DNA of 52,288 nucleotides from a virus. The notes below the pieces were generated by a model. That model was not told where the DNA came from. It did not search any database and saw nothing but the letters and a program-made list of their open reading frames with translations. Below, piece after piece: positions 7,916 through 34,752 of the stretch; positions within the stretch are counted from its first letter, which is position 1; each line of letters opens with the position of its first letter. The position numbers were made by a program, and so were the translations under genes. The DNA is taken from positions 1-52,288 of the IMG/VR virus record IMGVR_UViG_3300017917_003067. The stretch is one strand, 5' to 3'.

Positions 7916-10039
7916 ATGCCATTTCAAGTTAGTCCAGGCGTAAACGTATCTGAAATTGACCTGACTACGGTAGTTCCAGCTGTCTCCACCACAGAAGGTG
8001 CGCTAGCTGGTATTTTCCGTTGGGGTCCAGTCAATACAAGAGTGTTAGTAGATTCAGAATCTACTCTTGTTTCCAGATTCGGCAAACCTACCAATCTAAA
8101 CGCAGAGACATTTTTCACTGCAGCAAATTTCCTGTCTTATGGAAATAAGCTTTATACAGTAAGAACTGCTAATACTACAGATCCTACCGGAGCAGCAGGC
8201 GTTCTGACCGCCTACGCAAACGTTGGAGCAGTTACGACAAACACAAATCTTATCGTTAAGAATGACGCCGATATCGACAATCAATTGGTTATCGACAATC
8301 TAGCTGCAGAAACTAACGTAAGATACGTTGCAAGATATCCAGGCGCTCTGGGTAACTCGCTGAAAATTTCGGTTTGTGACACATCTGAAGCATATTTTGC
8401 TAACATCCAGCTCACAAACGCTGATGCAAATCTCAGCTCAAACGGTCAAATCACAAATATTAGCGCAACATCAGGAGCTAATCAGTTCTCAATTACTATT
8501 GGACAAAGCGGTACTGGTGTAATTGGTGAAGCAGTTGATCGCCTTACAGCCGTTAAAGCAAAACTTTCTGTTGGTGACCTAATCGAATTAGGAAATTCTA
8601 CTATTGGTACACAGCTAGTTAAAGTGTCCGCCATTGGTAACGTTACCAATACTTCAACAGTTGCTACTCTGCTAGTAAATACAGAGTCAAAGTACACCCT
8701 TCTCAACTTCAGCGGTTCTGGCTCTTCAAACGTAAGCGCAACCGCCGCTGGATATCTGAAGAGATATTGGGAATACGCAAACGCAGTTGATCGCGCACCA
8801 GGACCATCAGAGTATCAAGCCAATTACGGCGGTACAGCAGGAGCAATCGATGAAGTTCACGTTGTTATTGCTGATGAGAACGGTCAATTTACAGGGGTAC
8901 CAGGGACAATTCTTGAAGTTTACGAAGGATTGTCGAGAGCTACAGATGCAAAATCTGCTGATGGAGCTTCAATCTATATTAAAGATGTTATTAATGCACA
9001 GTCGCGCTATGTATACTATAACACAAATAGAATTGCTGGATACACCAACACTGCAATTAACATTACAAACACTCTGTCTAACACCGCACCAATGACAATG
9101 TCGTTCACAGGTGGTTCGGATGGAGCATCGGAGTCTACTTCTACATTTAATATTGTAGCAGCCGGATACGATATGTTTAAGTCAGCCGAAGATGTTGATA
9201 TTTCCTTAATTCTTCAAGGCAAGGCCATCGGTACAAACGATGGAGCTCAGATCGGATCCTACATTATTAATAACATTGTAGAGTCGAGAAAAGATTGCGT
9301 AGCATTCCTTTCGCCAAGCAGAGCATCGGTTGTTGCTAAATCTGATGGATCAGAAGTAGATAATACAATTACCTTCAGAAACAACCTTCCAAGTACTTCT
9401 TACGCCGTGCTTGACTCTGGTTACAAGTATCAGTACGACAAGTACAATGATGTTTACAGATATGTTCCTTTAAACGGCGACGTTGCCGGCCTGTGTGTAA
9501 GAACCGATGATACAAGAGATCCATGGTTCTCTCCAGCAGGGTTTAACAGAGGAAATATTAAGAACGTTGTCAAGCTTGCTTACAATCCTAACAGAGCACA
9601 AAGAGATCAACTCTATAAAAACGGAATTAACCCAGTTGTTACATTCCCCGGAGAAGGAACTGTTCTGTTTGGTGATAAGACTCTTCTGTCCAAGCCAAGC
9701 GCATTCGACAGAATTAACGTTCGCAGACTATTCAACATCCTTGAGAAAGCAATTTCTACTGCAGCCAAGTTCACACTGTTCGAGTTTAACGATGAGTTTA
9801 CTCGCTCACAGTTTAAGAACCTAGTAGAGCCTTTCCTTCGTGATGTGCAAGGTCGTCGCGGTATCTACGACTTCAAAGTAGTGTGTGATGAAACTAACAA
9901 CACAACAGAAGTTATTGATAGAAATGAGTTTGTTGGAGATATTTACATCAAACCAGCTAAGTCAATTAACTATATCCAGCTGAATTTTGTGGCCGTTAGA
10001 TCAGGTGTTGAGTTCTCAGAAATAGTCGGACAGGCTTAA
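7916..10039 (+). CDS. 18: Tail sheath protein gp18
   Basis: A protein of 707 residues. The N-terminus QVSPGVNVSEIDLT is the typical phage sheath opening strand, and the conserved C-terminal domain includes ISTAAKFTLFEFND, then F.RDVQGRRGIYDFKVVCD and IYIKPAKSINYIQLNFV. It forms the contractile outer sheath. The middle of the protein is variable and Thr/Ser/Asn-rich, as expected of surface-exposed insertions. It has its own late promoter, and gene 19 follows in the same direction. Confidence 0.96.
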   Translation: MPFQVSPGVNVSEIDLTTVVPAVSTTEGALAGIFRWGPVNTRVLVDSESTLVSRFGKPTNLNAETFFTAANFLSYGNKLYTVRTANTTDPTGAAGVLTAYANVGAVTTNTNLIVKNDADIDNQLVIDNLAAETNVRYVARYPGALGNSLKISVCDTSEAYFANIQLTNADANLSSNGQITNISATSGANQFSITIGQSGTGVIGEAVDRLTAVKAKLSVGDLIELGNSTIGTQLVKVSAIGNVTNTSTVATLLVNTESKYTLLNFSGSGSSNVSATAAGYLKRYWEYANAVDRAPGPSEYQANYGGTAGAIDEVHVVIADENGQFTGVPGTILEVYEGLSRATDAKSADGASIYIKDVINAQSRYVYYNTNRIAGYTNTAINITNTLSNTAPMTMSFTGGSDGASESTSTFNIVAAGYDMFKSAEDVDISLILQGKAIGTNDGAQIGSYIINNIVESRKDCVAFLSPSRASVVAKSDGSEVDNTITFRNNLPSTSYAVLDSGYKYQYDKYNDVYRYVPLNGDVAGLCVRTDDTRDPWFSPAGFNRGNIKNVVKLAYNPNRAQRDQLYKNGINPVVTFPGEGTVLFGDKTLLSKPSAFDRINVRRLFNILEKAISTAAKFTLFEFNDEFTRSQFKNLVEPFLRDVQGRRGIYDFKVVCDETNNTTEVIDRNEFVGDIYIKPAKSINYIQLNFVAVRSGVEFSEIVGQA

Positions 10040-21263: not shown

Positions 21264-22975
21264 TATATTTTCGTAATATTAAGTGGCAAAACTTTTTATC
21301 AACCGGTAACGCATTCACACAAATAGATTTTACTCGTAACCGCTCTACTTTGATTGTAGGGGAAAATGGGTCGGGTAAATCTACTATTTTGGATGCATTG
21401 TCGTTTGCGCTGTATGGCAAACCCTTCCGTAAGATTAATAAACCTCAATTGGTTAACTCTATTAATCAGAAAGGGCTTGAAGTAGTTTTAGAATTTTCGA
21501 TAGGAAGCAAGCAGTATAAGGTCAGGAGAGGAATCAAGCCAAACATTTTTGAAATTTATCAGAACGGCGTGCTTATTAATCAAGACGCCGAATCAAAAGA
21601 ATATCAAGAAATGTTTGAGAAAAATATTTTAAAATTAAATCATAAGTCGTTTAGTCAAATTGTTATCTTAGGGAGCGCCTCGTTTGTGCCGTTCATGCAA
21701 CTCACAGCACAAAATAGGAGAGAAATTATTGAAGATCTACTAGACATTCAAATCTTCTCTACAATGAATACTCTTCTTAAGGATAGAATAACAGAGAATA
21801 AAAATAAAATAGCTGATGTTGATTATAACATTAAACTTGCAGGCGAAAAGATTGAAATGTTAAAACGTCACATCAGCGTACTAAAAACAAACAATGAAGA
21901 GTTAATTAGACAAAAGCAAACAAAAATCTCAGAGTACGATTTAGAGATTGAGAGAGTAACAGCAGAGATTTCAGCTTTTACGAAAGAACAAAAAGCTCTC
22001 AATGATTCTATTTCAGACCAGAGTAAGGTGCAGGGAAAAATCAGAACACTTGAGACTCTTTCCACTCAACTTGATTCTAAGATTAACAAACTCGAAAAGG
22101 AAGTAGAGTTCTTTACTGACCATAACGACTGCCCTACCTGCCGACAGGGCATTGAGCATGAACATAAGGAAGAGATTATTAAGAGGGATAATTCCCAGAT
22201 TGACGAAGTCCGTAAAGGGAAGGCCAAACTCACAGAAGAGTATAATAGTCTTAATGCTCGATTAGTTGAAATTACTCAGACACTACAAAAGATAACCGAC
22301 GTTGCTACTCAAATCTCAAATGCCAATGTTCAAATAACTACATGGAATAAATTTATTTCTGGATTGAAAGAAGAGATTCAAGCACTTGAGAAAGACACGT
22401 CAAGCAGTGAAGACAATTCTGAAGAGTTAAATCAATTAAAAGCAGCGCTGAGAGAGTTGCTGCAGCAACGTGAGGATCATATAAAGGACAAACAAGTACT
22501 AGATATTGCTGCTGTACTGTTGAAAGATACTGGCATAAAGACTAAAATTATTAAACAGTATGTTCCTATTATGAATAAGTTAATAAACAAGTATCTTGCT
22601 TCAATGGACTTTTTTGTCAATTTTGAATTGAATGAAAGTTTTGAAGAAGTAATTAAATCGAGGTATAGAGATGAATTTAGTTATGAGAGTTTTTCGGAAG
22701 GTGAAAAAATGCGCATTGACTTGGCATTACTTTTTACTTGGAGAGCAATTGCTAAACTACGTAACTCTGCCAGTACTAATCTACTCATTATGGATGAAGT
22801 ATTTGATAGCTCATTGGATAACTCTGGCACAGACGAGTTTCTTAAAATACTTCAATCTCTTACTTCTGACACTAACACCTTTATCATAAGCCATAAAGGA
22901 GATCAGTTGTTTGATAAGTTTGAGCATGTATTAAGATTTGAAAAGCATAAAAATTTCTCAAGGATGGTAGCATGA
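21260..22975 (+). CDS. 46: Recombination nuclease subunit gp46 (SbcC/Rad50-like)
   Basis: A protein of 571 residues of the SMC/Rad50 type. Walker A GENGSGKST at residues 34-42, long coiled coils, a zinc-hook CPTC at about residues 291-294, signature FSEGEKMRIDLAL and Walker B LLIMDEVFDSSLD near the C-terminus, then the H-loop FIISHK. Partner of gp47 at 19717. Short coiled coils give the small size typical of phage Rad50 homologues. It overlaps both its neighbours by 4 bases. Confidence 0.96.
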   Translation: MIYFRNIKWQNFLSTGNAFTQIDFTRNRSTLIVGENGSGKSTILDALSFALYGKPFRKINKPQLVNSINQKGLEVVLEFSIGSKQYKVRRGIKPNIFEIYQNGVLINQDAESKEYQEMFEKNILKLNHKSFSQIVILGSASFVPFMQLTAQNRREIIEDLLDIQIFSTMNTLLKDRITENKNKIADVDYNIKLAGEKIEMLKRHISVLKTNNEELIRQKQTKISEYDLEIERVTAEISAFTKEQKALNDSISDQSKVQGKIRTLETLSTQLDSKINKLEKEVEFFTDHNDCPTCRQGIEHEHKEEIIKRDNSQIDEVRKGKAKLTEEYNSLNARLVEITQTLQKITDVATQISNANVQITTWNKFISGLKEEIQALEKDTSSSEDNSEELNQLKAALRELLQQREDHIKDKQVLDIAAVLLKDTGIKTKIIKQYVPIMNKLINKYLASMDFFVNFELNESFEEVIKSRYRDEFSYESFSEGEKMRIDLALLFTWRAIAKLRNSASTNLLIMDEVFDSSLDNSGTDEFLKILQSLTSDTNTFIISHKGDQLFDKFEHVLRFEKHKNFSRMVA

Positions 22976-23490
22976 TTTTAGACTTAGTAAAAGAAGACGA
23001 CCCTATTTTGTATGAGGAAGTTAAGCGCTTTGACTTTTCCAATCCTCCGATTAACCCAGGTGAACTGGTGAACAACCTCATTGAAACAATGGTTCATTAT
23101 AAAGGTCTAGGACTGTCAGCAAATCAATGTGGTCTTCCTTATCGGTGCTTTGTTCTCTTTTCACAAGAACCTTTTGGTGTATTTAATCCAACGCTAGTAG
23201 AACGAACCTCAGAACAAATCTTACTAGATGAAGGGTGCCTGTCTTTTAAAAATTTGTTTGTAAAAATAAAACGCCCTAAATCCATCAAAGTACGTTATCA
23301 AAAGTATACAGGGGAGTTCGTAACTGAAACGTATACAGGTATGACAGCTAGAGCATTCATGCACGAACTGGATCATTTAAATGGCGTAGATTATACTAAG
23401 AGAGCAAACATTATCCATCTTGAACGCGCAATGCGCCAAAGAAAAAATATTTCACGGCAAATAAAAAGGCAAGAAAGTTTAGCTATATAA
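22972..23490 (+). CDS. def: Peptide deformylase
   Basis: A protein of 172 residues with the three deformylase motifs: GLGLSANQCG (motif I), EGCLSF (motif II, with the metal-binding Cys) and HELDHLNG (motif III, HExxH). It removes the formyl group from N-formyl-methionine of new proteins. Phage-borne deformylases are known in marine T4-like phages, where they are thought to speed maturation of host or phage proteins. It overlaps gene 46 by 4 bases and precedes the deazaguanine genes. All catalytic residues are present. Confidence 0.93.
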   Translation: MILDLVKEDDPILYEEVKRFDFSNPPINPGELVNNLIETMVHYKGLGLSANQCGLPYRCFVLFSQEPFGVFNPTLVERTSEQILLDEGCLSFKNLFVKIKRPKSIKVRYQKYTGEFVTETYTGMTARAFMHELDHLNGVDYTKRANIIHLERAMRQRKNISRQIKRQESLAI

Positions 23491-23524: not shown

Positions 23525-24373
23525 ATGTCTAAGTTAAAAGTATCAGAGCTGTTTTATAGTATTCAAGGTGAAGGACGCTATATGGGTGTACCTTCAGTCT
23601 TTCTAAGAACTTACGGCTGTAATTTCACCTGTTCAGGTTTTGGAATGCCCAGGGGGGAGTTAAGTGAAGAACGCCTTAAAGTCAATCCTGAAAATTATTC
23701 GAAGTATGACCAGCTTCCCCTTGTTCATACTGGGTGTGATAGTTACGCTTCCTGGGATCCTCGCTTTAAGCATCTTAGTCCTGTTATTGAGTGTTCCCAA
23801 TTGGCTAAGGACATTGTTAACCTCCTACCACAGAAGAAATGGCAAGACGAGCACCTAGTTATTACCGGTGGTGAACCTCTATTAGGTTGGCAACGCTCCT
23901 ACCCAGATCTCCTTGAACAAGAATGCATGATCGGTCTGGAAGAAATCACATTTGAAACAAACGGCACTCAACAGTTAACAGAAAACTTTGCTGACTACTT
24001 GTTTCAAGAGTTTACCCGCCACGGCCGCGGTTACGATAAACTAACATTCTCAGTATCCCCTAAACTTTCTATCTCTGGAGAAAAAAGAGAAGATGCTATT
24101 TGTCCGGAAGTAATCGCTCAATATAGTTCGATTGGGTATACCTATGTTAAGTTTGTAGTAGCAACTGAACAAGACGTTGAGGAAGCCAGACAGGCTGTAA
24201 ATGATTATCGCGCTGCAGGGTTTAACGGTCCAGTATACATTATGCCATGTGGAGGGACCGAGCAACTTTATTACCTTAACAATAGACAGGTAGCAGAGCT
24301 TGCGATGAAGATGGGCTGGCGCTATTCTGATCGCTTACAAATTCCCTTATTTAAAAATGCCTGGGGTACATGA
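23525..24373 (+). CDS. queE: QueE-like 7-carboxy-7-deazaguanine synthase (radical SAM) with displaced cluster cysteine
   Basis: A protein of 282 residues. The N-terminus FYSIQGEGRYMGVPSVFLR and the ITGGEPLL motif are those of QueE, which converts 6-carboxytetrahydropterin to 7-carboxy-7-deazaguanine. The usual CxxxCxxC cluster motif is altered: Cys32 and Cys36 are followed by Gly-Phe rather than a third Cys, and about 34 residues later GCDSYASWD supplies Cys71 in the context normally found at the third cysteine. This reads as an insertion within the cluster loop (CX3CX34C). It lies with queD, folE, queC and queF in the same block. A ribosome site TAGGAG precedes the ATG. Confidence 0.88.
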   Translation: MSKLKVSELFYSIQGEGRYMGVPSVFLRTYGCNFTCSGFGMPRGELSEERLKVNPENYSKYDQLPLVHTGCDSYASWDPRFKHLSPVIECSQLAKDIVNLLPQKKWQDEHLVITGGEPLLGWQRSYPDLLEQECMIGLEEITFETNGTQQLTENFADYLFQEFTRHGRGYDKLTFSVSPKLSISGEKREDAICPEVIAQYSSIGYTYVKFVVATEQDVEEARQAVNDYRAAGFNGPVYIMPCGGTEQLYYLNNRQVAELAMKMGWRYSDRLQIPLFKNAWGT

Positions 24374-24816
24374 TGAAAAAGTTGGATTATAATTACGACA
24401 ACTACATGGACGATCTATCTTCCATAGTTTATGCTATTGAAAAAGCAAACATTTATTATGATGTAGTAGCAGGAGTAGTAAGAGGTGGGCTAGTACCCGC
24501 AGTACAACTATCACACATACTGGATTCTAACTTTGTTGCACTGAATTGGTCTAGTAATGTTTCTAGAGTAAGAGATAAACAAAATCCTATTATAAAAGCC
24601 GCTATCGAAAGAAATCAAAAAATATTGATAGTAGATGATATCTGCGATACAGGAGTATCTCTCGATGATATTACCAAAGCATATCAAGGGGTACATACTG
24701 CTACTTTAGTGTACAACAATATTAACGCCAGAGGATTTACTCCTACCTACTATGGGTGGGAAATTAATAGAAACGAGACCCCTGAGTGGTTAGATTTTTG
24801 GTGGGAGAAAAAATGA
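24370..24816 (+). CDS. Phosphoribosyltransferase-like protein
   Basis: A protein of 148 residues of the type I phosphoribosyltransferase fold. The PRPP-binding loop is ILIVDDICDTGVSL, and the first loop AGVVRGGLVPAVQLSH is the usual pyrophosphate-binding region. The closest classes are xanthine/guanine or hypoxanthine phosphoribosyltransferases, but substrate cannot be told. It lies between queE and queD and overlaps both by a few bases (ATGATGA at the start, ATGA at the end), so it may salvage purine bases released when deazaguanine replaces guanine in DNA. That link is an inference. Confidence 0.75.
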   Translation: MMKKLDYNYDNYMDDLSSIVYAIEKANIYYDVVAGVVRGGLVPAVQLSHILDSNFVALNWSSNVSRVRDKQNPIIKAAIERNQKILIVDDICDTGVSLDDITKAYQGVHTATLVYNNINARGFTPTYYGWEINRNETPEWLDFWWEKK

Positions 24817-25322
24817 GTTTACAGCCCGTAATATACAAGTACGTTTCAACTAAAGAATATGTAGATGCATTTCCGGTAGCTTATCGTCAATGGAGAGCTG
24901 ACTCACATTGTAATTTAATTCACGGCTATGCTTTCTCGATGAAGTTTTGGTTTGGCAGCAATGATTTAGATTTTCGTAACTGGGTAGCCGATTACGGAGG
25001 ATTTAAAGAACTAAAAGAAATACTACAACATCAATTTGATCATACATTGTTAGTGGCACAGGACGATCCTGAGATTGAAATGTTTCATGAATTAGAAAGA
25101 AAAAAGCTTGCCAAGTTAACTATTCTGCCAAGGTTGGGTTGTGAGGGTTTAGCTGATATGCTTTACAGGTATGTCAACGGTGTGTATATTCCTGATTACT
25201 GGGGCCCGGGAGAGGCAAATCGACTCTGGTGCTTTAGAGTAGAAGTAAGAGAAACACAAGCTAATATGGCTTTTAGAGAAGGCCACAGAGAATGGAAAGA
25301 AAATTTATTTGAAGGACTGTAA
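24813..25322 (+). CDS. queD: QueD-like 6-carboxytetrahydropterin synthase homologue with altered metal site
   Basis: A protein of 169 residues of the PTPS/QueD fold. I chose ATG 24813, overlapping the upstream stop; the longer frame from 24786 begins inside the upstream gene. QueD makes 6-carboxytetrahydropterin from the FolE product. The catalytic cysteine context SHCNLIHG, the DH pair (Asp76-His77) and a conserved Glu in LGCEGLADM are present. However, the zinc triad of standard QueD (His in FxAAH, and both His of HGH) reads here as Tyr24, His37 and Tyr39. Similar HGY forms occur, as I recall, in marine T4-like phages. The role is assigned from fold and neighbours. Confidence 0.8.
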   Translation: MSLQPVIYKYVSTKEYVDAFPVAYRQWRADSHCNLIHGYAFSMKFWFGSNDLDFRNWVADYGGFKELKEILQHQFDHTLLVAQDDPEIEMFHELERKKLAKLTILPRLGCEGLADMLYRYVNGVYIPDYWGPGEANRLWCFRVEVRETQANMAFREGHREWKENLFEGL

Positions 25323-25324
25323 TT

Positions 25325-25516
25325 ATGATGACCAAGCGTGAATTACAAGATTTCATTATGCATTTAGAAGATATCCATCGAGCAGTTGACAAGCAAATAG
25401 AAGTACACTATAGACAGTACGATGATGATATGCATGTAAAAATGCTAAAGAAGAAAAAATTAGATCTTAAAGATCAAATTGAGCACTACACAAAGAAACT
25501 TGAGGATTTTAAATAA
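25325..25516 (+). CDS. Small helical protein, DUF465/YdcH-like
   Basis: A protein of 63 residues, one long helical hairpin with many charged residues. The pattern LEDIHRAVDKQI, then LKKKKLDLKDQIEHY, matches the small DUF465 (YdcH) family, whose members are short alpha-hairpin proteins of unknown function. It is placed between queD and folE and shares its last base with the folE start. A role in the pathway is not evident; it may simply ride along. Confidence 0.55.
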   Translation: MMTKRELQDFIMHLEDIHRAVDKQIEVHYRQYDDDMHVKMLKKKKLDLKDQIEHYTKKLEDFK

Positions 25517-26208
25517 TGGAAAAAAATCTATCGCAGACAATTAGAGAGAGAATGAAACGCGAAGGTAAGCGTTTCTGGGCTGGAGATAATATCAGTGATT
25601 ATCTTCACGAAAGTGATAAAGAACACTTAATTAACGAGGCAACAGAAGCTTTTGAGCAGGTACTAGATACTTTACTCATTGATCGTGAAACAGATCCCAA
25701 CTCAAAGGGTACTGCCAAGCGTCTGGCAAAAATGTACTATAATGAAATTATGGCCGGACGATACGACCCTGCACCTGATTCTACCGCGTTTCCTAATGAC
25801 AGTGAAGACAGATACTCGGGTATGCTTGTGGTACGGTCAGAGCTTAAATCTCTTTGTTCACACCATCATCAACCTGTGAGAGGTGTAGCGTATATCGGTA
25901 TCATCCCTGGAAGTAAAGTAATTGGGCTTTCCAAGTACACACGCATTGCTCAGTGGCACGCTCGAAGGGGTACACTTCAAGAAGAACTTTGCAATCAAAT
26001 TGCAAAATCAATTATGCAAGCAACAGAATCACCAGACGTTGCTGTTTATATTGCCGCCAAGCACGGATGTTGTGAAAATAGAGGTATTATGGCTCAGTCA
26101 TCGCTTACGCAGACTACCGTACTACACGGACAATTCCATGACGCGTCAGTAAAGAAAGAGTTTTTTGATAACATAGCACTACAGCAGACGTATGGAGAGA
26201 AGCTTTAA
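25516..26208 (+). CDS. folE: GTP cyclohydrolase I (FolE)
   Basis: A protein of 230 residues. Zinc ligands are visible in LCSHHHQP (Cys114, His117) and in HGCCENRG, and SKVIGLSKYTRIAQWHARR and SSLTQTTVLHGQF are the usual family motifs. It opens the ring of GTP to give 7,8-dihydroneopterin triphosphate, the first intermediate of both folate and 7-deazaguanine synthesis. Its place beside queD and queE indicates the deazaguanine role. Active-site residues look intact. A new promoter starts the next gene group 40 bases downstream. Confidence 0.93.
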   Translation: MEKNLSQTIRERMKREGKRFWAGDNISDYLHESDKEHLINEATEAFEQVLDTLLIDRETDPNSKGTAKRLAKMYYNEIMAGRYDPAPDSTAFPNDSEDRYSGMLVVRSELKSLCSHHHQPVRGVAYIGIIPGSKVIGLSKYTRIAQWHARRGTLQEELCNQIAKSIMQATESPDVAVYIAAKHGCCENRGIMAQSSLTQTTVLHGQFHDASVKKEFFDNIALQQTYGEKL

Positions 26209-27222: not shown

Positions 27223-28003
27223 AATTGCACATGAAGCACCTCTTTCTATTTTCAATCACGTACAGGAAGTAACGGATTACGATTATGCTTTAGTGCATTT
27301 ATTTGAAGAGAGTGAAGAGTATTGGAATAAGTTTAAACGAGCAAAAGAAAAGGGTCGAGAGATCATTCTGGATAATTCTATCTTCGAACTCGGAGAGGCA
27401 TTTAATTCTGACAAGTATAGAGGTTGGATTGAAAAATTAATGCCTGATTATTACATTATTCCAGATGTTCTTGAAGATGCAGAAGCAACTGTAGCTCGCC
27501 TTATTAACTGGGAGCCAGTCGCCGGTTGTAAAACTATCGGAGTAGTTCAAGGTAAAAGTTTAGAAGATATTATCTGGTGTTACGAAGAAGTAGAGCCTCG
27601 AGTGGATAAAGTAGCTTTCTCATTTGACTATTCCTTTTTTGTGGATGAATATATTAATGGAAAACTCCCGACAGTGTATCATCATTACATGTACGGACGG
27701 GACGCACTTCTGCACCATTTACTCCATTCCGGGATTATCAACACACAGAAACCTCATCACCTCCTCGGATGTGGCCTACCTCAAGAATTTTCCTCATACC
27801 GTGATTTTACCTGGCTCGATTCTATCGATACTTCAAACCCGGTCGTTGCGGGCTTGAAGGGAATGAGGTATAGAGGGGAGGACGGTTTAGAAGATAAGCC
27901 CTCTCAAAAATTATTCACTATGATCAATCAAGAGGTGGATGATGGAACTTTGGAAAAGATCCTTTACAACATCGAGTGCTTCCGAGCTATCTGTAATGGA
28001 TGA
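27215..28003 (+). CDS. dpdA: DpdA-like DNA guanine transglycosylase (tRNA-guanine transglycosylase family)
   Basis: A protein of 262 residues. ATG 27215 has an AGGAG site and begins the conserved MVKIAHEAPLSIFN. The motifs REIILDNSIFELG, YYIIPDVLED, TIGVVQGKSLED, VAFSFDYS and HHLLGCGLPQEF follow the barrel order of the tRNA-guanine transglycosylase family, in the short form known from phages (DpdA), which lacks the tRNA-binding extension. These enzymes swap a guanine in DNA for a 7-deazaguanine base. Conserved Asp residues in LDNS and IPD are candidates for catalysis. It sits among folE, queD, queE, queF and queC, which strongly supports DNA modification. Confidence 0.86.
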   Translation: MVKIAHEAPLSIFNHVQEVTDYDYALVHLFEESEEYWNKFKRAKEKGREIILDNSIFELGEAFNSDKYRGWIEKLMPDYYIIPDVLEDAEATVARLINWEPVAGCKTIGVVQGKSLEDIIWCYEEVEPRVDKVAFSFDYSFFVDEYINGKLPTVYHHYMYGRDALLHHLLHSGIINTQKPHHLLGCGLPQEFSSYRDFTWLDSIDTSNPVVAGLKGMRYRGEDGLEDKPSQKLFTMINQEVDDGTLEKILYNIECFRAICNG

Positions 28004-28559
28004 ACTCCCTATGAGAAGGGGCTGGATAGCTATGTTCAGCCAATCAGGCTCCGAGCTTGTTGGAATTTGTGAGCGGTTAGGGTTCCAGCCTACTGTTGTG
28101 TTTACTAATAACCTAAACGAACTAACCTATCATCCAGGTACAAGCAATTTTAATATCGTGAAGTGGAAACACGATATTATTATGGATTTTTTACGAGAAG
28201 AGTATAGTAGTAAAAAATGGTTAATTACTCTTCACGGGTACTTAAGAATTCTACCGGCCGACATCTGTGAAAAGTTTGAAGTATATAACGGACATCCAGG
28301 AGACATTAGAACTTATCCCGTACTAAAAGGAAAAGACCCTCAAAAGAAAGCTCTTGAATTAAAACTTCCTTCCACAGGGACTGTAATACATCGCGTTACA
28401 CCCGAAGTAGATGAGGGAGAAATTATGAGACTTCATTCCTGCTTGATAGAAGAGAATGAAACATTAGATAGTTTAATTGGCAAATTAAAAGAAAGGTCTA
28501 TAGAATTATGGGTAGACTTTTTAAAGACGAGGCTATTATTGAATGAGAATTGGAATTAG
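27996..28559 (+). CDS. dpdN: Formyltransferase, DpdN-like (probable dPreQ1 formyltransferase)
   Basis: A protein of 187 residues with the glycinamide-ribonucleotide/Met-tRNA formyltransferase fold. The catalytic triad is visible: Asn98 and His100 in VYNGHPGD and Asp139 in PEVDEGEIM, with STGTVIHRV between them as in PurN-type enzymes. It overlaps dpdA by 8 bases, so it is very likely part of the DNA modification. In published phage work a formyltransferase (DpdN) is assigned to formylation of the preQ1 base in DNA. QueF, which makes preQ1, is encoded two genes downstream. Start could also be ATG 28011. A PurN-type metabolic role is less likely here. Confidence 0.78.
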   Translation: MDELPMRRGWIAMFSQSGSELVGICERLGFQPTVVFTNNLNELTYHPGTSNFNIVKWKHDIIMDFLREEYSSKKWLITLHGYLRILPADICEKFEVYNGHPGDIRTYPVLKGKDPQKKALELKLPSTGTVIHRVTPEVDEGEIMRLHSCLIEENETLDSLIGKLKERSIELWVDFLKTRLLLNENWN

Positions 28560-29103
28560 TGGAGCACAATCGGTAGGTAAAACTACTTTACTTAACGCGT
28601 TAAGATCAGAACCTGTTTTTAAGGAATATGCTATCTGTGACGAAGTTACTCGTAGAGTAAAAAGCTATGGCTTGTTAATTAATGAGCACGGCAACGATAT
28701 TACTCAAAGATTAATAATGCAAGAGCATATAGTTAATCTGTACATGCATGACAATATGATTACAGATAGAACTTCTTTGGATGGTTTAGTTTATTCAAAG
28801 TATCTGAGACAAAAAGATAAAATTAGTCAAGAAACTTTAGATTACGCATATAGAATTTTTGAAAAGACCATACGCCAGTATGATCTTTTATTTTATATTG
28901 TGCCGGAGTTTGATATAGAAGACGACGGAACAAGAAGTACAGATATAAAGTTTAGAGATGATATAGTACAAACGTTCAACGATGTTATGAGTGTACATAG
29001 CATAGACTTTTTATTTGTGACAGGTTCGGTAAGACAACGCACTCAATTTATTCTTGACATCTATAATACAGAATTAGAACATAGGAAAAAACATAATGAA
29101 TAA
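28543..29103 (+). CDS. P-loop nucleotide kinase, NadR/AAA_28-like
   Basis: A protein of 186 residues. Walker A GISGAQSVGKTTLL at the N-terminus, an MITDRTSLDGLVYS segment of the kinase type, and the C-terminal helices of the AAA_28/NadR-like family. Such proteins phosphorylate nucleosides, nucleotides or nicotinamide riboside. It overlaps the formyltransferase by 17 bases and queF by 8. It might act on a nucleotide of the modification or on pool balance; the substrate cannot be told. Confidence 0.75.
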   Translation: MRIGISGAQSVGKTTLLNALRSEPVFKEYAICDEVTRRVKSYGLLINEHGNDITQRLIMQEHIVNLYMHDNMITDRTSLDGLVYSKYLRQKDKISQETLDYAYRIFEKTIRQYDLLFYIVPEFDIEDDGTRSTDIKFRDDIVQTFNDVMSVHSIDFLFVTGSVRQRTQFILDIYNTELEHRKKHNE

Positions 29104-30025
29104 TCAAGAAGAACTTAATCGATTAGTATCAGTTCACCTAGGTAAGGCTGGAGATGGTACAGTAGTAAAGCCATACGTAACACCTGATGAGGTTGATCCT
29201 TCACTGTTAGTAGCTGTGCCTAGACAACTTAATCGTACAGCTTATGGATTAGATGACAGGCGCTTACCGTTTGCAGGGAGAGATAGTTGGAACTCGTACG
29301 AATTTTCTACCCTACTTAAAAACGGCTTTCCTATTTCAGGATGGTTAAAATTTGTATATGATTGTCACTCACCGAACATTGTTGAGTCTAAATCAGTCAA
29401 GCTCTATCTTAATTCTTTTAATATGGCCCGTCTAATTGATACACAAGACGAGATTTATAAGATTGAAAGAATGATCGAAGAGGACTTACAAAAAGCAACC
29501 GGAGATAGGACACCGGTAAAAGCTTGTTTGTTTATTAATCCGGGTGATACAGTTAAACCATTCGCCGGCGATTTTATTTCATTAGAGTTTTATTGTGATG
29601 TAGAAAATATGTCATTTGATCGTTACAATGAATCGGCTGACATCTTAGAAGTAATTCCAACAAAAGAACAATATGCAATAAAGTGGCGTTCTCATTCACT
29701 TCGTTCAAACTGCCGTGTTACTAATCAGCCTGATTGGGGTGATGTCTATATTCATATGAAAGGTAAGAAAGGAGTTACAGCTGAATCTTTACTCCGTTAT
29801 ATTATCTCTATGAGAAAAGAGAATCACTTTCACGAAGAAATTTGCGAGTGTATTTACAAACGTCTCTGGGATTTACTTGAACCAGAAGAGCTATTAGTGG
29901 GATGTTTATATACTCGAAGAGGAGGAATTGATATTAACCCAGTACGTGCTTCTTCTAACAGCCTACTCTATGATCATTCTATTATTAACGCAGCAGTACC
30001 TTCTACAAAGACCCCAAGACAATGA
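29096..30025 (+). CDS. queF: QueF, NADPH-dependent 7-cyano-7-deazaguanine (preQ0) reductase
   Basis: A protein of 309 residues, the long bimodular (E. coli-type) QueF, slightly longer than the 282-residue E. coli enzyme. ESKSVKLYLNSFN (Glu97) binds substrate, Cys206 and Asp213 in SNCRVTNQPDW are the nucleophile and acid, and HFHEE (about residues 244-248) completes the site. It reduces the nitrile of preQ0 to the aminomethyl group of preQ1. Its presence implies that the phage does not stop at preQ0. Overlaps of 8 and 4 bases link it to its neighbours. Confidence 0.93.
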   Translation: MNNQEELNRLVSVHLGKAGDGTVVKPYVTPDEVDPSLLVAVPRQLNRTAYGLDDRRLPFAGRDSWNSYEFSTLLKNGFPISGWLKFVYDCHSPNIVESKSVKLYLNSFNMARLIDTQDEIYKIERMIEEDLQKATGDRTPVKACLFINPGDTVKPFAGDFISLEFYCDVENMSFDRYNESADILEVIPTKEQYAIKWRSHSLRSNCRVTNQPDWGDVYIHMKGKKGVTAESLLRYIISMRKENHFHEEICECIYKRLWDLLEPEELLVGCLYTRRGGIDINPVRASSNSLLYDHSIINAAVPSTKTPRQ

Positions 30026-30279
30026 AATCACCTGACAATAATGTAAATCAAATTTGTGAGGAGTTTGTAGAACGCTCCCTCCACGGGTTTAAAAAGTATA
30101 ATACCACAACAGAAAGAACTGATCTTGATATGGACCAGTGGCTACAGCATCTTAAAGAAGAACTTATGGATGCAGTAGTTTATTTACATCGAGTTCAGCA
30201 GGAACGAGTAGTAAAAAAAGAAAATGATATTAATCTACAAATGAGTATATTTGATGATGAACCTAGACAAGGCTGTTAG
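30022..30279 (+). CDS. MazG-like / dATP-dGTP diphosphohydrolase-like small protein
   Basis: A protein of 85 residues. KYNTTTERTDLDMDQWLQHLKEELMDAVVYLHR carries an EExxD motif on a helix and resembles all-alpha nucleotide pyrophosphohydrolases of the MazG type and the N-terminal part of phage dATP/dGTP diphosphohydrolases. Such an enzyme could hydrolyse dGTP or other nucleotides and shift the pool. It lies between queF and queC with overlaps of 4 and 26 bases. The short length means only one helical half is present. The call is by pattern only. Confidence 0.55.
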   Translation: MKSPDNNVNQICEEFVERSLHGFKKYNTTTERTDLDMDQWLQHLKEELMDAVVYLHRVQQERVVKKENDINLQMSIFDDEPRQGC

Positions 30280-31030
30280 CAGTTTACCCAACATAGAATA
30301 CAATCAAAACGTTGTGTCTGTGCTGTCCGGTGGGTTAGATAGCACGATAATGACTTATATACTAAAGGCAAAGTACGGCATCCGTCCTAACGAGATGTAT
30401 TCTAGGGTTATTGCTCTTTCATTTGATTATGGTCAAAAACAAAAGCGAGAGTTAGAGTTAGCTAAAAAGACTTGTGACTATCTTTGCATTCAGCATCACG
30501 TACTAGACCTAGCTATTCTTGGTGAGATTGCTAAACCAATATCTGCTAACATTTCAGGTTCTGATGTAAACATGCCAACTATTAAAGAGGTGTTGGGTGA
30601 TCCGCAGCCTAAAACTTATGTACCGTTTCGCAATATGATTCTAAACGCGCTTGCATTCTCATTTGCAGAATCACACAATGCGCCTTATGTATTTACAGGC
30701 TTACAAGTACACGACGAATATGGTTATTGGGATACTACACAAAAGTTTGTCGATAGTATGAATGCAGTCGCCGAGCAAAATAGAACTCATAAAGTCAAAC
30801 TGCTTGCTCCTTTCAGTCACCTGTCGAAGTATGAAGAATTAGAAATTGCAAAGGAGATTGGAAATGTTAAACTCGATTTTACTCTTACTTGCTATAATCC
30901 TGATTCTGCAGGCAGAAGTTGCGGTAAGTGCCCTTCTTGCAGTGAGCGTATTGCTAACTTTAGTAAAGCTAAACTGAAGGACCCTGTACCCTACTCAGTT
31001 GACATTCCTTGGGACAAATTAATAAAATGA
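30254..31030 (+). CDS. queC: QueC, 7-cyano-7-deazaguanine synthase
   Basis: A protein of 258 residues. The PP-loop VLSGGLDST at the N-terminus binds ATP, and the C-terminal CGKCPSC together with the earlier CYNP cysteine makes the zinc site. It converts 7-carboxy-7-deazaguanine to preQ0 with ATP and ammonia, via an amide intermediate. ATG 30254 or 30257 is preferred; a TTG at 30251 would add only one residue. It overlaps the gene upstream by 26 bases and the next by 4. Confidence 0.93.
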   Translation: MMNLDKAVSSLPNIEYNQNVVSVLSGGLDSTIMTYILKAKYGIRPNEMYSRVIALSFDYGQKQKRELELAKKTCDYLCIQHHVLDLAILGEIAKPISANISGSDVNMPTIKEVLGDPQPKTYVPFRNMILNALAFSFAESHNAPYVFTGLQVHDEYGYWDTTQKFVDSMNAVAEQNRTHKVKLLAPFSHLSKYEELEIAKEIGNVKLDFTLTCYNPDSAGRSCGKCPSCSERIANFSKAKLKDPVPYSVDIPWDKLIK

Positions 31031-31548
31031 TAAAAACTGTTTACTTAGATATGGACGGCGTTATCGCTGATTTTGACAAATTATACTCTAGCACGTACGG
31101 GTGTTTTTGTAGAGAAGATCCTAATAAAGACAATTGGTTTGACTTTGTAAATAAAAAAGGCTTTGTAAACATTCCTCTGATGGTAGACGCTCTTTTATTA
31201 CTTCAGGGTCTAGCTAACATGGATGTTGACATCGAAATACTATCTTGCATTTCTAACAAATCCAACGCCAATCAAGTAAGGCTTCAGAAAATAGAATGGC
31301 TGTACAATAAAGGCTTTGGTTCTCTCCCCTACAATTTCACTGCCACAAAGTCTGAAAAATCTGACTACGCAACAGAAGAAACATTATTAATAGATGATTC
31401 GGTAGCTTGTGTTAATCCTTTTAGGGAAGCAGGTGGGTATGCTATCTTGCACAAAAATGCAAGAAACACTATAATTGAGATTGATTGTATGATTAAAAAA
31501 GGATTGGTATGTGCGCTATCATCGGATCAAAAAGAATTGATACATTAA
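31027..31548 (+). CDS. HAD-family 5'(3')-deoxyribonucleotidase-like protein
   Basis: A protein of 173 residues. YLDMDGVIADF at residues 6-16 is the HAD nucleophile motif (Asp8, Asp10), and TLLIDDSVACVNPFREAGG is the C-terminal acid motif. The layout matches the NT5C-type 5'-nucleotidases found in several phages. It would dephosphorylate nucleoside monophosphates. ATG 31027 overlaps the queC stop. It overlaps the glutamine amidotransferase gene by 40 bases, a large coupling overlap. Confidence 0.75.
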   Translation: MIKTVYLDMDGVIADFDKLYSSTYGCFCREDPNKDNWFDFVNKKGFVNIPLMVDALLLLQGLANMDVDIEILSCISNKSNANQVRLQKIEWLYNKGFGSLPYNFTATKSEKSDYATEETLLIDDSVACVNPFREAGGYAILHKNARNTIIEIDCMIKKGLVCALSSDQKELIH

Positions 31549-32156
31549 AAAAATTAGTTGAATTAAATTCGTATCGAGGTTCTCATTCTTACTCATTCTC
31601 ACTTTATAACATCACCACCGGCATCCTTACGGTAGAAGTAAAGAAGTTAGGAACAATCGATCTATCCCGACATACCATACCTCCTAACAATTACGGAATT
31701 GTGCACGTACAAGCTCCCACCACAGAGGTAAGAACAGAGCAAGCAGTTCACCCTGCAATTATAAAAGATAAATTTGAAACATGGCCTTTGAAAGCATTAT
31801 GGCACAATGGTATTATAAAAGCTGAGGTCGTCAAGGAAAACGCAGCTAAGTATAATACATCGTGGGATACAATGCAGATACTAGAAAGTATTCGTACGAG
31901 TTTTGATAACTTGAATGAGTTTGACGGTACGTTTAGCTGTTTATATTATGATAGGGATGACCTTTCACTGAATATTTTTCGTAATGAAATTTCGCCAATG
32001 TTCATCGATAATGAATTGAATTTGTCATCAACTAAATTTGAGGGAAGTAGGGAAACTGCTCCTAATACGGTCATGAAAATGGACTTCTCAAGAAATTCTC
32101 TTTCCGTAAAAGCTAAATTTGATACTGTTGAAAATCCTTATTATTTTGGAGAATGA
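31509..32156 (+). CDS. Stand-alone class II glutamine amidotransferase domain
   Basis: A protein of 215 residues beginning Met-Cys-Ala-Ile-Ile-Gly, so Cys2 is a ready N-terminal nucleophile once Met is removed. Other family features follow in order: Arg23-Gly24 in NSYRGSHS, a GIVHVQAPT strand, WHNG (oxyanion Asn-Gly), FDGTFSCLYYD, IFRNEISPMFI and LSSTKFEG. This is the glutaminase half only; no synthase domain is attached. In some phages such a domain is fused to QueC and linked to amidated deazaguanine. Here queC is two genes upstream, so it may supply ammonia to QueC. Partner and product are inferred. Confidence 0.78.
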   Translation: MCAIIGSKRIDTLKKLVELNSYRGSHSYSFSLYNITTGILTVEVKKLGTIDLSRHTIPPNNYGIVHVQAPTTEVRTEQAVHPAIIKDKFETWPLKALWHNGIIKAEVVKENAAKYNTSWDTMQILESIRTSFDNLNEFDGTFSCLYYDRDDLSLNIFRNEISPMFIDNELNLSSTKFEGSRETAPNTVMKMDFSRNSLSVKAKFDTVENPYYFGE

Positions 32157-33536: not shown

Positions 33537-34190
33537 ATGCAATTTGAAAATAGAACGTTGAATATATTGAAGAACTTTTCTACTATTAATCCCTCCATTG
33601 TATTCAAGGAGGGTAATAGTCTTTCTACAATGTCACCTGTACAAACGGTTATAGCTAAAGCAACCATTGCTGAGAGCATACCAAAGCAGTTTGCAATTGC
33701 CGAGCTCAGTAAATTTTTAAGTGTACTATCTTTATTTGAAACTCCTACGCTAGATGTCAAGGACAATCACTTAGAGATTAAAAAAGACGACCAGCAAGTA
33801 AACTACACTTTTGGTGAAGAATCACTGATCGTTTATCCACAGAAAGAGCTTAAACTTCCTTCGTTTGATGTTGAGTTTGACTTGCCCGAGTCTACGCTGA
33901 GCAGCTTACTCAAAGCAATGGCAGTACTAAAGTATAGCGAGGTCGCAATTTCTGGTAACGATGGAAACATCTACCTTGAAACGGTAAACACTAAAAATCC
34001 AAGCAGTGATACTTTTAAAGTAAAAGTAGGTACTACAGACTCTAAATTTAAAGTAATAATCAAAGAAAATAATCTTAAGCTTATTAATGACAGCTATAAG
34101 GTAAAAATTTCTAAGAAGGGTCTAGCTGAACTACAGGGCAAATATGTTACTTACTGGATCGCTACAGAAGCAACTTCAACCTTTGAGTAG
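33537..34190 (+). CDS. 45: Sliding clamp gp45
   Basis: A protein of 217 residues similar to gp45 clamps of T4-like phages: LNILKNFSTINPSIVFKEG, MSPVQTVIAKATI and FGEESLIVYP. The trimeric clamp tethers the gp43 polymerase and, in T4, activates late transcription with gp55. A GAGAGG ribosome site is present. Its 3' end overlaps the methyltransferase frame by 47 bases. The clamp loader genes 44 and 62 follow downstream. Confidence 0.93.
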   Translation: MQFENRTLNILKNFSTINPSIVFKEGNSLSTMSPVQTVIAKATIAESIPKQFAIAELSKFLSVLSLFETPTLDVKDNHLEIKKDDQQVNYTFGEESLIVYPQKELKLPSFDVEFDLPESTLSSLLKAMAVLKYSEVAISGNDGNIYLETVNTKNPSSDTFKVKVGTTDSKFKVIIKENNLKLINDSYKVKISKKGLAELQGKYVTYWIATEATSTFE

Positions 34191-34752
34191 TCTTACCTGG
34201 GATATCGAAGTTGGAGCATGTGATTTCGATAATATTAATCCCAATCCAGAACATCAAACTCTTTTTGTAGAGCCTGTTCCTTATTATGCTCAAAAACTTA
34301 GAAATAGGTTTAGCGATTATGGAAATGTCGAAATTGAGCAATGCGCTGCTTCCAATACTATCGGAAAGACATCAATTAAGTTTGTAGGGCCTGAACTAGT
34401 AAAAGAAGAATGGGTGAGAGGAATTAGTCACTTAACTAATAATTCTAGCAACTTAATTGATAGAAATTTAAATTTAGGATACGACTTAGGGCCTACTATT
34501 ACTGAAGAAGTACCAACTGCTACTATCGATTCAATTATTAGTAAGTACAATATTAATAAAATTGGAATTTTTAAATTAGACGTCGAAGGACACGAATTAA
34601 AAGTATTAGAAGGATTCAGCTGGAGTGTATTACCAGAAATAGTTAAAATAGAACATAAGTTTATAGACCTTAGACTTTTACTAGACATTTTAAAATCTAA
34701 GGGATATGATTGTTGGTATGATAGTGAAGATGTATTTGGATATTTGACATGA
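34144..34752 (+). CDS. FkbM-like SAM-dependent methyltransferase
   Basis: A protein of 202 residues from ATG 34144, or about 189 from a TTG at 34183; either start lies within the end of gp45 and neither has a clear ribosome site. The motifs DIEVGACDFDN (SAM loop), LFVEPVPYYAQKLR, and VPTATIDSIISKY with IFKLDVEGHELKVLEG near the C-terminus are characteristic of FkbM-type methyltransferases, usually acting on sugars or small O-linked groups. It interrupts the usual 45-44 order. Possible links to the glycosyltransferase upstream are inferred. Confidence 0.72.
   Translation: MLLTGSLQKQLQPLSSLTWDIEVGACDFDNINPNPEHQTLFVEPVPYYAQKLRNRFSDYGNVEIEQCAASNTIGKTSIKFVGPELVKEEWVRGISHLTNNSSNLIDRNLNLGYDLGPTITEEVPTATIDSIISKYNINKIGIFKLDVEGHELKVLEGFSWSVLPEIVKIEHKFIDLRLLLDILKSKGYDCWYDSEDVFGYLT

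What the first reader, a model, noticed from the sequence alone, without database searches (positions are those of the whole stretch)
27996..28559. Formyltransferase fused by overlap to dpdA: predicted formylated preQ1 in DNA
The gene overlaps dpdA by 8 bases and has the Asn-His-Asp triad of 10-formyl-THF formyltransferases. With QueF present, the amine of preQ1 is a ready acceptor. The predicted base is 7-(formylamino)methyl-7-deazaguanine, which has been reported from few phages.
Basis: partly seen in the sequence, partly recalled or inferred. Interest (0 to 1): 0.82.

Follow-up and report, generated by a model that had tools for sequence, protein, structure and literature searches.

The report
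Phage enzyme predicted to formylate DNA
This virus of bacteria carries a complete gene set for swapping guanines in its DNA for a modified base, and the flagged gene most likely puts a small formyl cap on that base; the chemistry was already predicted for a few phages, but here it turns out to be very common, and in four related viruses a different capping enzyme sits in the same slot.

Summary
ORF 27996-28559 (187 aa) overlaps dpdA by 8 nt and keeps the Asn98/His100/Asp139 formyltransferase triad. It is not PurN. It forms its own 100/100-supported clade with 24 relatives; residues invariant in PurN (Gly9, Asn13, Glu173) are replaced; it scores 37 bits against a 150-bit PurN cut-off. The window holds folE, queD, queE, queC, queF and a dpdA with a TGT fold.

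Comparative evidence supports the predicted role. In 107 dereplicated DpdA loci from IMG/VR, the next recognised gene is this formyltransferase in 85. All 85 triad-intact copies lie with queF. The only locus with the gene but no queF has a decayed triad. Formylation of the QueF product (preQ1, free or in DNA) is therefore the best explanation: a DpdN-type enzyme giving 7-(formylamino)methyl-7-deazaguanine. I could not read the DpdN paper, so membership by sequence is untested, and no chemistry is shown.

Beyond the finding: four related phage contigs carry a GNAT acetyltransferase instead, in exactly the same slot. This predicts an N-acetylated preQ1 DNA base that I know of no report of. The DpdA groups with that of Campylobacter phages whose guanine is fully replaced, so replacement here may be extensive.

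The parts
27996..28559 (+). Formyltransferase (DpdN-like), 187 aa; triad N98/H100/D139; family motifs FSQ[ST]GSE, [YF]NGHPG, LKGKDPQ
   Evidence: AF2 model pLDDT 91.2, top PDB folds are GAR transformylases, TM 0.77, ~21% identity
27215..28003 (+). dpdA: guanine transglycosylase of the subfamily that includes immuto gp65 and Campylobacter phage CP220 gp056
   Evidence: no Pfam/NCBIfam hit, but AF2 model pLDDT 94.4 matches tRNA-guanine transglycosylases as all top PDB hits; 56% to immuto DpdA, 36-37% to the CP220 group
28543..29103 (+). P-loop kinase-like protein (AAA_28; annotated 'thymidylate kinase' in relatives), role unknown, follows the formyltransferase in the cassette
   Evidence: PF13521 61.9 bits; next to dpdA also in CP220; present in 95 of 107 dereplicated loci
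29096..30025 (+). queF: preQ0 nitrile reductase, makes preQ1 (the amine acceptor)
   Evidence: PF14819/PF14489; TIGR03138 237.6 bits, below its 293.45 cut-off; Cys, E[SC]KS and FHE motifs in 109 of 112 relatives
30251..31030 (+). queC: preQ0 synthase
   Evidence: PF06508 176.3 bits; TIGR00364 166.9 bits over a 150.3 cut-off
23525..24373 (+). queE: 7-carboxy-7-deazaguanine synthase (radical SAM)
   Evidence: phrog_2076 186.3 bits; QueE models hit below cut-off
24786..25322 (+). queD: 6-carboxytetrahydropterin synthase
   Evidence: PF01242 47.4 bits; phrog_2389
25516..26208 (+). folE: GTP cyclohydrolase I
   Evidence: PF01227 136.9 bits
24370..24816 (+). phosphoribosyltransferase-like protein, in the same cluster in many relatives; role unknown
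   Evidence: PF00156 45.9 bits; found in 39 of 86 formyltransferase-bearing loci
31509..32156 (+). stand-alone class-II glutamine amidotransferase-like protein near queC (possible ammonia donor for QueC; inference)
   Evidence: PF13522 18.1 bits, below cut-off; Cys2 in the sequence; 67 similar ORFs in related loci

Best explanation
The gene encodes a DpdN-type 10-formyl-tetrahydrofolate-dependent formyltransferase that caps the primary amine of preQ1. FolE, QueD, QueE and QueC make preQ0, QueF reduces it to preQ1, and DpdA exchanges guanine in DNA for the 7-deazaguanine base. The formyltransferase transfers a formyl group to the aminomethyl nitrogen, giving 7-(formylamino)methyl-7-deazaguanine in phage DNA. 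Shown here: presence and order of the genes, intact triad, separation from PurN/Fmt/PurU, and dependence of the formyltransferase on queF across loci. Inferred: the acceptor, that capping follows insertion (DNA level, which I put at about 60:40 over free base), the host as source of formyl-THF, and extensive guanine replacement (the DpdA groups with that of Campylobacter phages whose G is fully replaced).
For: Triad kept: 22/22 aligned, 103/103 full-length copies other than L306. Own clade 100/100, stem 2.94. PurN-invariant residues lost: G9 to Q, N13 to E, E173 to S/A, in 22/22. Fold is GART-like. In 107 dereplicated DpdA loci the next recognised gene is the formyltransferase in 85; order DpdA-FT-kinase-QueF in 73. 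Triad-intact formyltransferase loci with QueF: 85/85, against 17/22 without an intact one, Fisher p = 2.5e-4, not corrected for relatedness. The one exception, L306, has no queF in its 72-kb record, and its protein has lost N98 and D139 and the KGKDPQ loop. Four relatives replace it in the same slot with another acyltransferase family, GNAT. Almost absent from bacteria: 3 hits in 84,980 genomes, at least one of them a phage-like contig. Same order in immuto phages.
Against: No chemistry. Some FT-minus phages of the same DpdA subfamily keep QueF, so the formyltransferase is an optional step. The Microcoleus copy L041 (motif NLHPG) has no dpdA within 8 kb, so relatives may have other acceptors. 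The canonical SLLP motif, reported to help bind the folate in primary-metabolism formyltransferases (PMC4786211), is replaced by G[DL]I, so the donor is assumed. QueF scores below NCBI's equivalog cut-off, and Hutinet et al. 2019 (PMC6884629) note that QueF and QueF-L are hard to tell apart by sequence.
Confidence: 0.83

Rival explanations
1. Same enzyme, but acting on free preQ1 before DpdA inserts the already formylated base (a sub-variant of the best explanation, so its confidence overlaps with it).
For: GART-fold formyltransferases mostly act on small molecules (established knowledge). The invariant Glu20 replaces PurN Asn13 and could read the guanine edge of a free base (inference).
Against: DpdA proteins of FT-plus and FT-minus phages intermingle in the tree, so this DpdA subfamily seems able to work without a formylated substrate. 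Capping after insertion needs no change in DpdA specificity.
Confidence: 0.33
2. It is an auxiliary phage PurN that boosts host purine synthesis (GAR to FGAR), placed near dpdA by chance.
For: Best sequence and fold matches are PurN, relatives are annotated as PurN, and the cyanophage P-SSM7 carries a PurN-like gene that groups with PurN in the tree.
Against: 37 bits against a PurN cut-off of 150; separate clade; PurN-invariant residues lost; fixed position next to dpdA in 85 of 107 loci; decays where queF is missing.
Confidence: 0.04
3. It formylates something else made by the same cassette, such as a nucleotide handled by the P-loop kinase, or a protein or tRNA amine.
For: The kinase is next door in 75 of 86 formyltransferase loci, and a peptide deformylase lies at 22972-23490.
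Against: 11 formyltransferase loci lack the kinase while keeping queF; the deformylase was detected in only 21 of 86 loci; there is no tRNA-binding C-terminal domain (187 aa).
Confidence: 0.06
4. QueF here is a QueF-like amidinotransferase and the DNA carries archaeosine rather than preQ1; the formyltransferase then acts on a different group.
For: QueF/QueF-L ambiguity in phages (PMC6884629); a glutamine-amidotransferase-like protein lies near queC.
Against: Phages Dp-1 and HVTV-1, whose proteins were first predicted to be QueF-L, carried dPreQ1 (PMC6884629). The amidotransferase-like protein is separate from QueC and could simply feed it ammonia.
Confidence: 0.05

Closest known systems
DpdN, predicted dPreQ1 formyltransferase (Cui et al. 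2023, NAR 51:9214; text not held, recalled from memory)
   Same: A formyltransferase in a phage 7-deazaguanine DNA-modification cluster with DpdA and QueF; same predicted product (fdPreQ1).
   Different: I could not obtain the reference DpdN sequence or the name of the phage in which fdPreQ1 was measured, so sequence membership is untested.
Flavobacterium phage vB_FspM_immuto gp67 (annotated PurN)
   Same: 45.8% identity over 92% of the protein; same gene order dpdA - FT - kinase - queF; same formyltransferase clade.
   Different: In immuto a small ORF lies between dpdA and the formyltransferase, and no queC was listed in the stretch shown.
PurN (GAR transformylase)
   Same: Fold (TM 0.77), triad, and the Gly11/Ser12 loop positions.
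   Different: G9, N13, M89 and E173 replaced; SLLP replaced by G[DL]I; own LKGKDPQ loop; separate clade.
Campylobacter phage CP220 dADG system
   Same: DpdA of the same subfamily (36-37% identity) directly followed by the same kinase.
   Different: No QueF, no formyltransferase; base reported as dADG with 100% replacement of dG (PMC8306585).
DpdM (dPreQ1 methyltransferase; recalled from memory)
   Same: Tailors the same amine.
   Different: Methyl instead of formyl; unrelated fold by its abstract (memory).

Membership tests
DpdN (phage dPreQ1 formyltransferase) | Formyl_trans_N domain with Asn-His-Asp triad | tested here: met
   PF00551 38.3 bits, cut-off 26.1; N98/H100/D139
DpdN (phage dPreQ1 formyltransferase) | Encoded with DpdA and a preQ1 pathway including QueF | tested here: met
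DpdN (phage dPreQ1 formyltransferase) | Sequence homology to the published reference DpdN | not testable with these tools
   paper not held; immuto gp67, the only close isolate relative, is 46% identical and may be the reference, but that is memory and inference
DpdN (phage dPreQ1 formyltransferase) | fdPreQ1 in the phage DNA | not testable with these tools
   needs LC-MS/MS
PurN | NCBIfam PurN equivalog score | tested here: not met
   37.2 bits, cut-off 150.1
PurN | Residues invariant in PurN (G9, N13, E173; the substrate-binding role of N13 and E173 is my own knowledge) | tested here: not met
   replaced in 22/22 relatives; invariant in 16/16 PurN
PurN | Placement in the PurN clade | tested here: not met
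   separate side of a 100/100 branch
Fmt (methionyl-tRNA formyltransferase) | Equivalog score and tRNA-binding C-terminal domain | tested here: not met
   24.9 bits, cut-off 201.5; 187 aa only
DpdA, subfamily with CP220 (probably the published DpdA3; subfamily name from memory) | TGT fold with two conserved aspartates and homology to the CP220 protein | tested here: met
   fold match to TGT; D53 and D205 invariant; CP220 protein 320 bits, immuto 414 bits with the family profile (both are in the profile's seed). Whether it is DpdA3 as published was not testable.

The most novel reading that the evidence does not exclude
The gene between dpdA and the kinase-queF pair is an exchangeable slot for N-acylating enzymes. 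Most phages fill it with the formyltransferase. Four contigs (L275/L313, L314, L249/L315, L321) fill it with a GNAT acetyltransferase, predicting 7-(acetylamino)methyl-7-deazaguanine in DNA, a base not among the eight derivatives I know from the literature. Others leave it empty. Together with the CP220-type DpdA, this predicts phage genomes whose guanines are largely replaced by N-acylated preQ1.
Probability: 0.45. Interest if true: 0.75.

Novelty: new member of a known kind. Interest (0 to 1): 0.52.

Why it matters
If right, formylated preQ1 is a common DNA base of environmental phages (at least 559 candidate IMG/VR stretches, limit reached) rather than a curiosity of a few isolates, and a hidden reason why such DNA may resist restriction enzymes or copy poorly in sequencing preparations. 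The decay of the formyltransferase in the one phage without queF, and the GNAT replacement in the same slot, give the assignment an evolutionary test and point to an untested DNA base, N-acetyl-preQ1. The isolated immuto phages make the formyl prediction directly testable.

Tried and rejected
PurN, Fmt and PurU identity were rejected by tree, residues and curated cut-offs. A link to the window's peptide deformylase was rejected because it was detected in only 21 of 86 formyltransferase loci. I tried to read the DpdN paper and the Campylobacter dADG paper; neither is held, and paper searches for DpdN or fdPreQ1 found nothing useful. A profile of DpdA found no solved relative by sequence, so I used fold comparison. 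I checked whether other 7-deazaguanine phages (Cellulophaga phi19:2, phiSM; Sinorhizobium Phosso; CP220) carry a formyltransferase; none does. A guessed accession gave phi38:1, which is unrelated. The BFVD fold search gave only giant-virus formyltransferases as credible matches.

Full report
What was checked. The window is a 52,288-base IMG/VR virus record from a T4-like myovirus by its terminase, sheath, portal, capsid and DNA polymerase. The reported ORF is real: ATG 27996 to stop 28559, 187 aa, overlapping dpdA (stop ending at 28003) by 8 nt. The relative in L004 (89% identical) starts at the same residue without a second Met, which supports the start. The conserved dpdA start is ATG 27215. 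The two genes overlap; they are not fused. Such overlap is typical: 61 of 78 dereplicated loci.

What the protein is. Pfam gives Formyl_trans_N at 38.3 bits. An AlphaFold2 model built on 26 relatives has pLDDT 91.2, and its best PDB matches are GAR transformylases at TM 0.77 and about 21% identity. In a tree with PurN, PurU, Fmt and other formyltransferases, the 25 window-type proteins fall on one side of a 100/100 branch of length 2.94. His108 and Asp144 are the catalytic residues given in PMC3261824, and the triad is listed in PMC4786211. Positions invariant in 16 of 16 PurN are replaced in 22 of 22: Gly9 by Gln, Asn13 by Glu, Glu173 by Ser or Ala. That N13 and E173 contact GAR is my own knowledge. 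The SLLP motif is replaced by G[DL]I, and a family-specific LKGKDPQ loop appears. NCBIfam's PurN model gives 37 bits against a cut-off of 150.

The pathway around it. folE, queD, queE, queC and queF are all present. The DpdA candidate matches no Pfam or NCBIfam model, but its model (pLDDT 94.4) matches tRNA-guanine transglycosylases as all top PDB hits. Its nearest named relatives are immuto phage DpdA (56%) and the Campylobacter CP220 group (36-37%). PMC8306585 states that in CP220 and CPt10 100% of dG is replaced by dADG. From memory, the published DpdA3 subfamily allows complete replacement; if this DpdA belongs there, extensive replacement is expected here too. That is inference.

Comparative test of function. 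Of 134 dereplicated DpdA loci, 107 have at least 3 kb downstream. The next recognised gene is the formyltransferase in 85, and the order DpdA-FT-kinase-QueF occurs in 73. Of the 86 loci with a formyltransferase, 85 have QueF. The exception, L306, has no QueF anywhere in its 72-kb record. Its formyltransferase has lost N98 (now Ser), D139 and the KGKDPQ region. All 103 other full-length copies keep Asn-His-Asp. Counting intact formyltransferases, QueF is present in 85 of 85, against 17 of 22 loci without an intact one (Fisher p = 2.5e-4). The p-value ignores relatedness, and the loci were gathered by DpdA or formyltransferase similarity, so it overstates independence; the L306 decay is the more telling single case. 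The dependence on QueF is what one expects if the acceptor is the amine that QueF makes.

The slot. In four contigs (L275/L313, L314, L249/L315, L321) the position between dpdA and the kinase holds a GNAT protein (PF00583, 28.5 and 22.9 bits, cut-off 20.7, in the two scanned). No formyltransferase was found elsewhere in those records, though records may be fragments. The next-nearest DpdA relatives (56-57% to L275) mostly carry the formyltransferase in the same slot (L326, L327, L328, L330; L329 ends too soon to tell), while L325 has none. A swap of one acyltransferase family for another on the same predicted amine supports the reading and predicts N-acetyl-preQ1 DNA. No relative of the GNAT protein was found in the isolate phage collection. 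GNAT proteins acylate many amines, so this prediction is weaker than the formyl one.

Distribution. Among 50,697 phage records only the immuto phages carry a close relative; P-SSM7 carries a PurN-like protein on the other side of the tree. A profile scan of 84,980 bacterial and archaeal genomes found three loci: L040 has the whole phage operon and is phage-like, L042 has DpdA alongside, and L041 (Microcoleus) has no dpdA within 8 kb.

Level of action. DpdA proteins from FT-plus and FT-minus phages intermingle in the tree, so no DpdA change seems needed when the formyltransferase comes or goes. I read this as slightly favouring capping after insertion into DNA, without excluding the free base.

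Known or new. The chemistry and the name DpdN are published (Cui et al. 2023, cited in PMC13329287), but that text was not held, so my account of its content is memory. This is a new member of a known kind with strong comparative support. The GNAT variant would be a new variant.

Noticed in passing
L275:8801-9346, L249:8798-9349, L314:6001-6540, L321:617-1159: GNAT acetyltransferase in exactly the formyltransferase slot (dpdA - GNAT - kinase - queF) in four phage contigs; predicts N-acetyl-preQ1 DNA.
   Followed up: yes
L306:8767-9327: Decayed formyltransferase (triad lost, loop deleted) in the only FT-bearing phage locus without queF.
   Followed up: yes
window 28543-29103: P-loop kinase-like protein next to this DpdA subfamily, also in CP220 and in phages without QueF or formyltransferase; may be needed for this kind of DpdA system. 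Function unknown.
   Followed up: partly
window 31509-32156: Stand-alone class-II glutamine amidotransferase-like protein near queC, conserved in many formyltransferase-bearing loci (67 ORFs); looks like a split version of Gat-QueC or an ammonia donor.
   Followed up: partly
window 22972-23490: Peptide deformylase upstream of queE, found upstream of queE in several relatives too; ordinary phage gene or something more is open.
   Followed up: no
L041:7995-8537: Formyltransferase relative on a Microcoleus MAG scaffold beside radical SAM, kinase, DegT-type and phosphoribosyltransferase genes, with no dpdA within 8 kb; may have another acceptor.
   Followed up: partly
L292:7989-10102: Distant DpdA phage with queD, queE, folE and queC but no kinase, queF or formyltransferase, and an unknown 168-aa ORF (8811-9317) after dpdA: another possible tailoring gene.
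   Followed up: no
window 34144-34752: FkbM-type methyltransferase between the sliding clamp and clamp-loader genes; unusual spot for such a gene.
   Followed up: no
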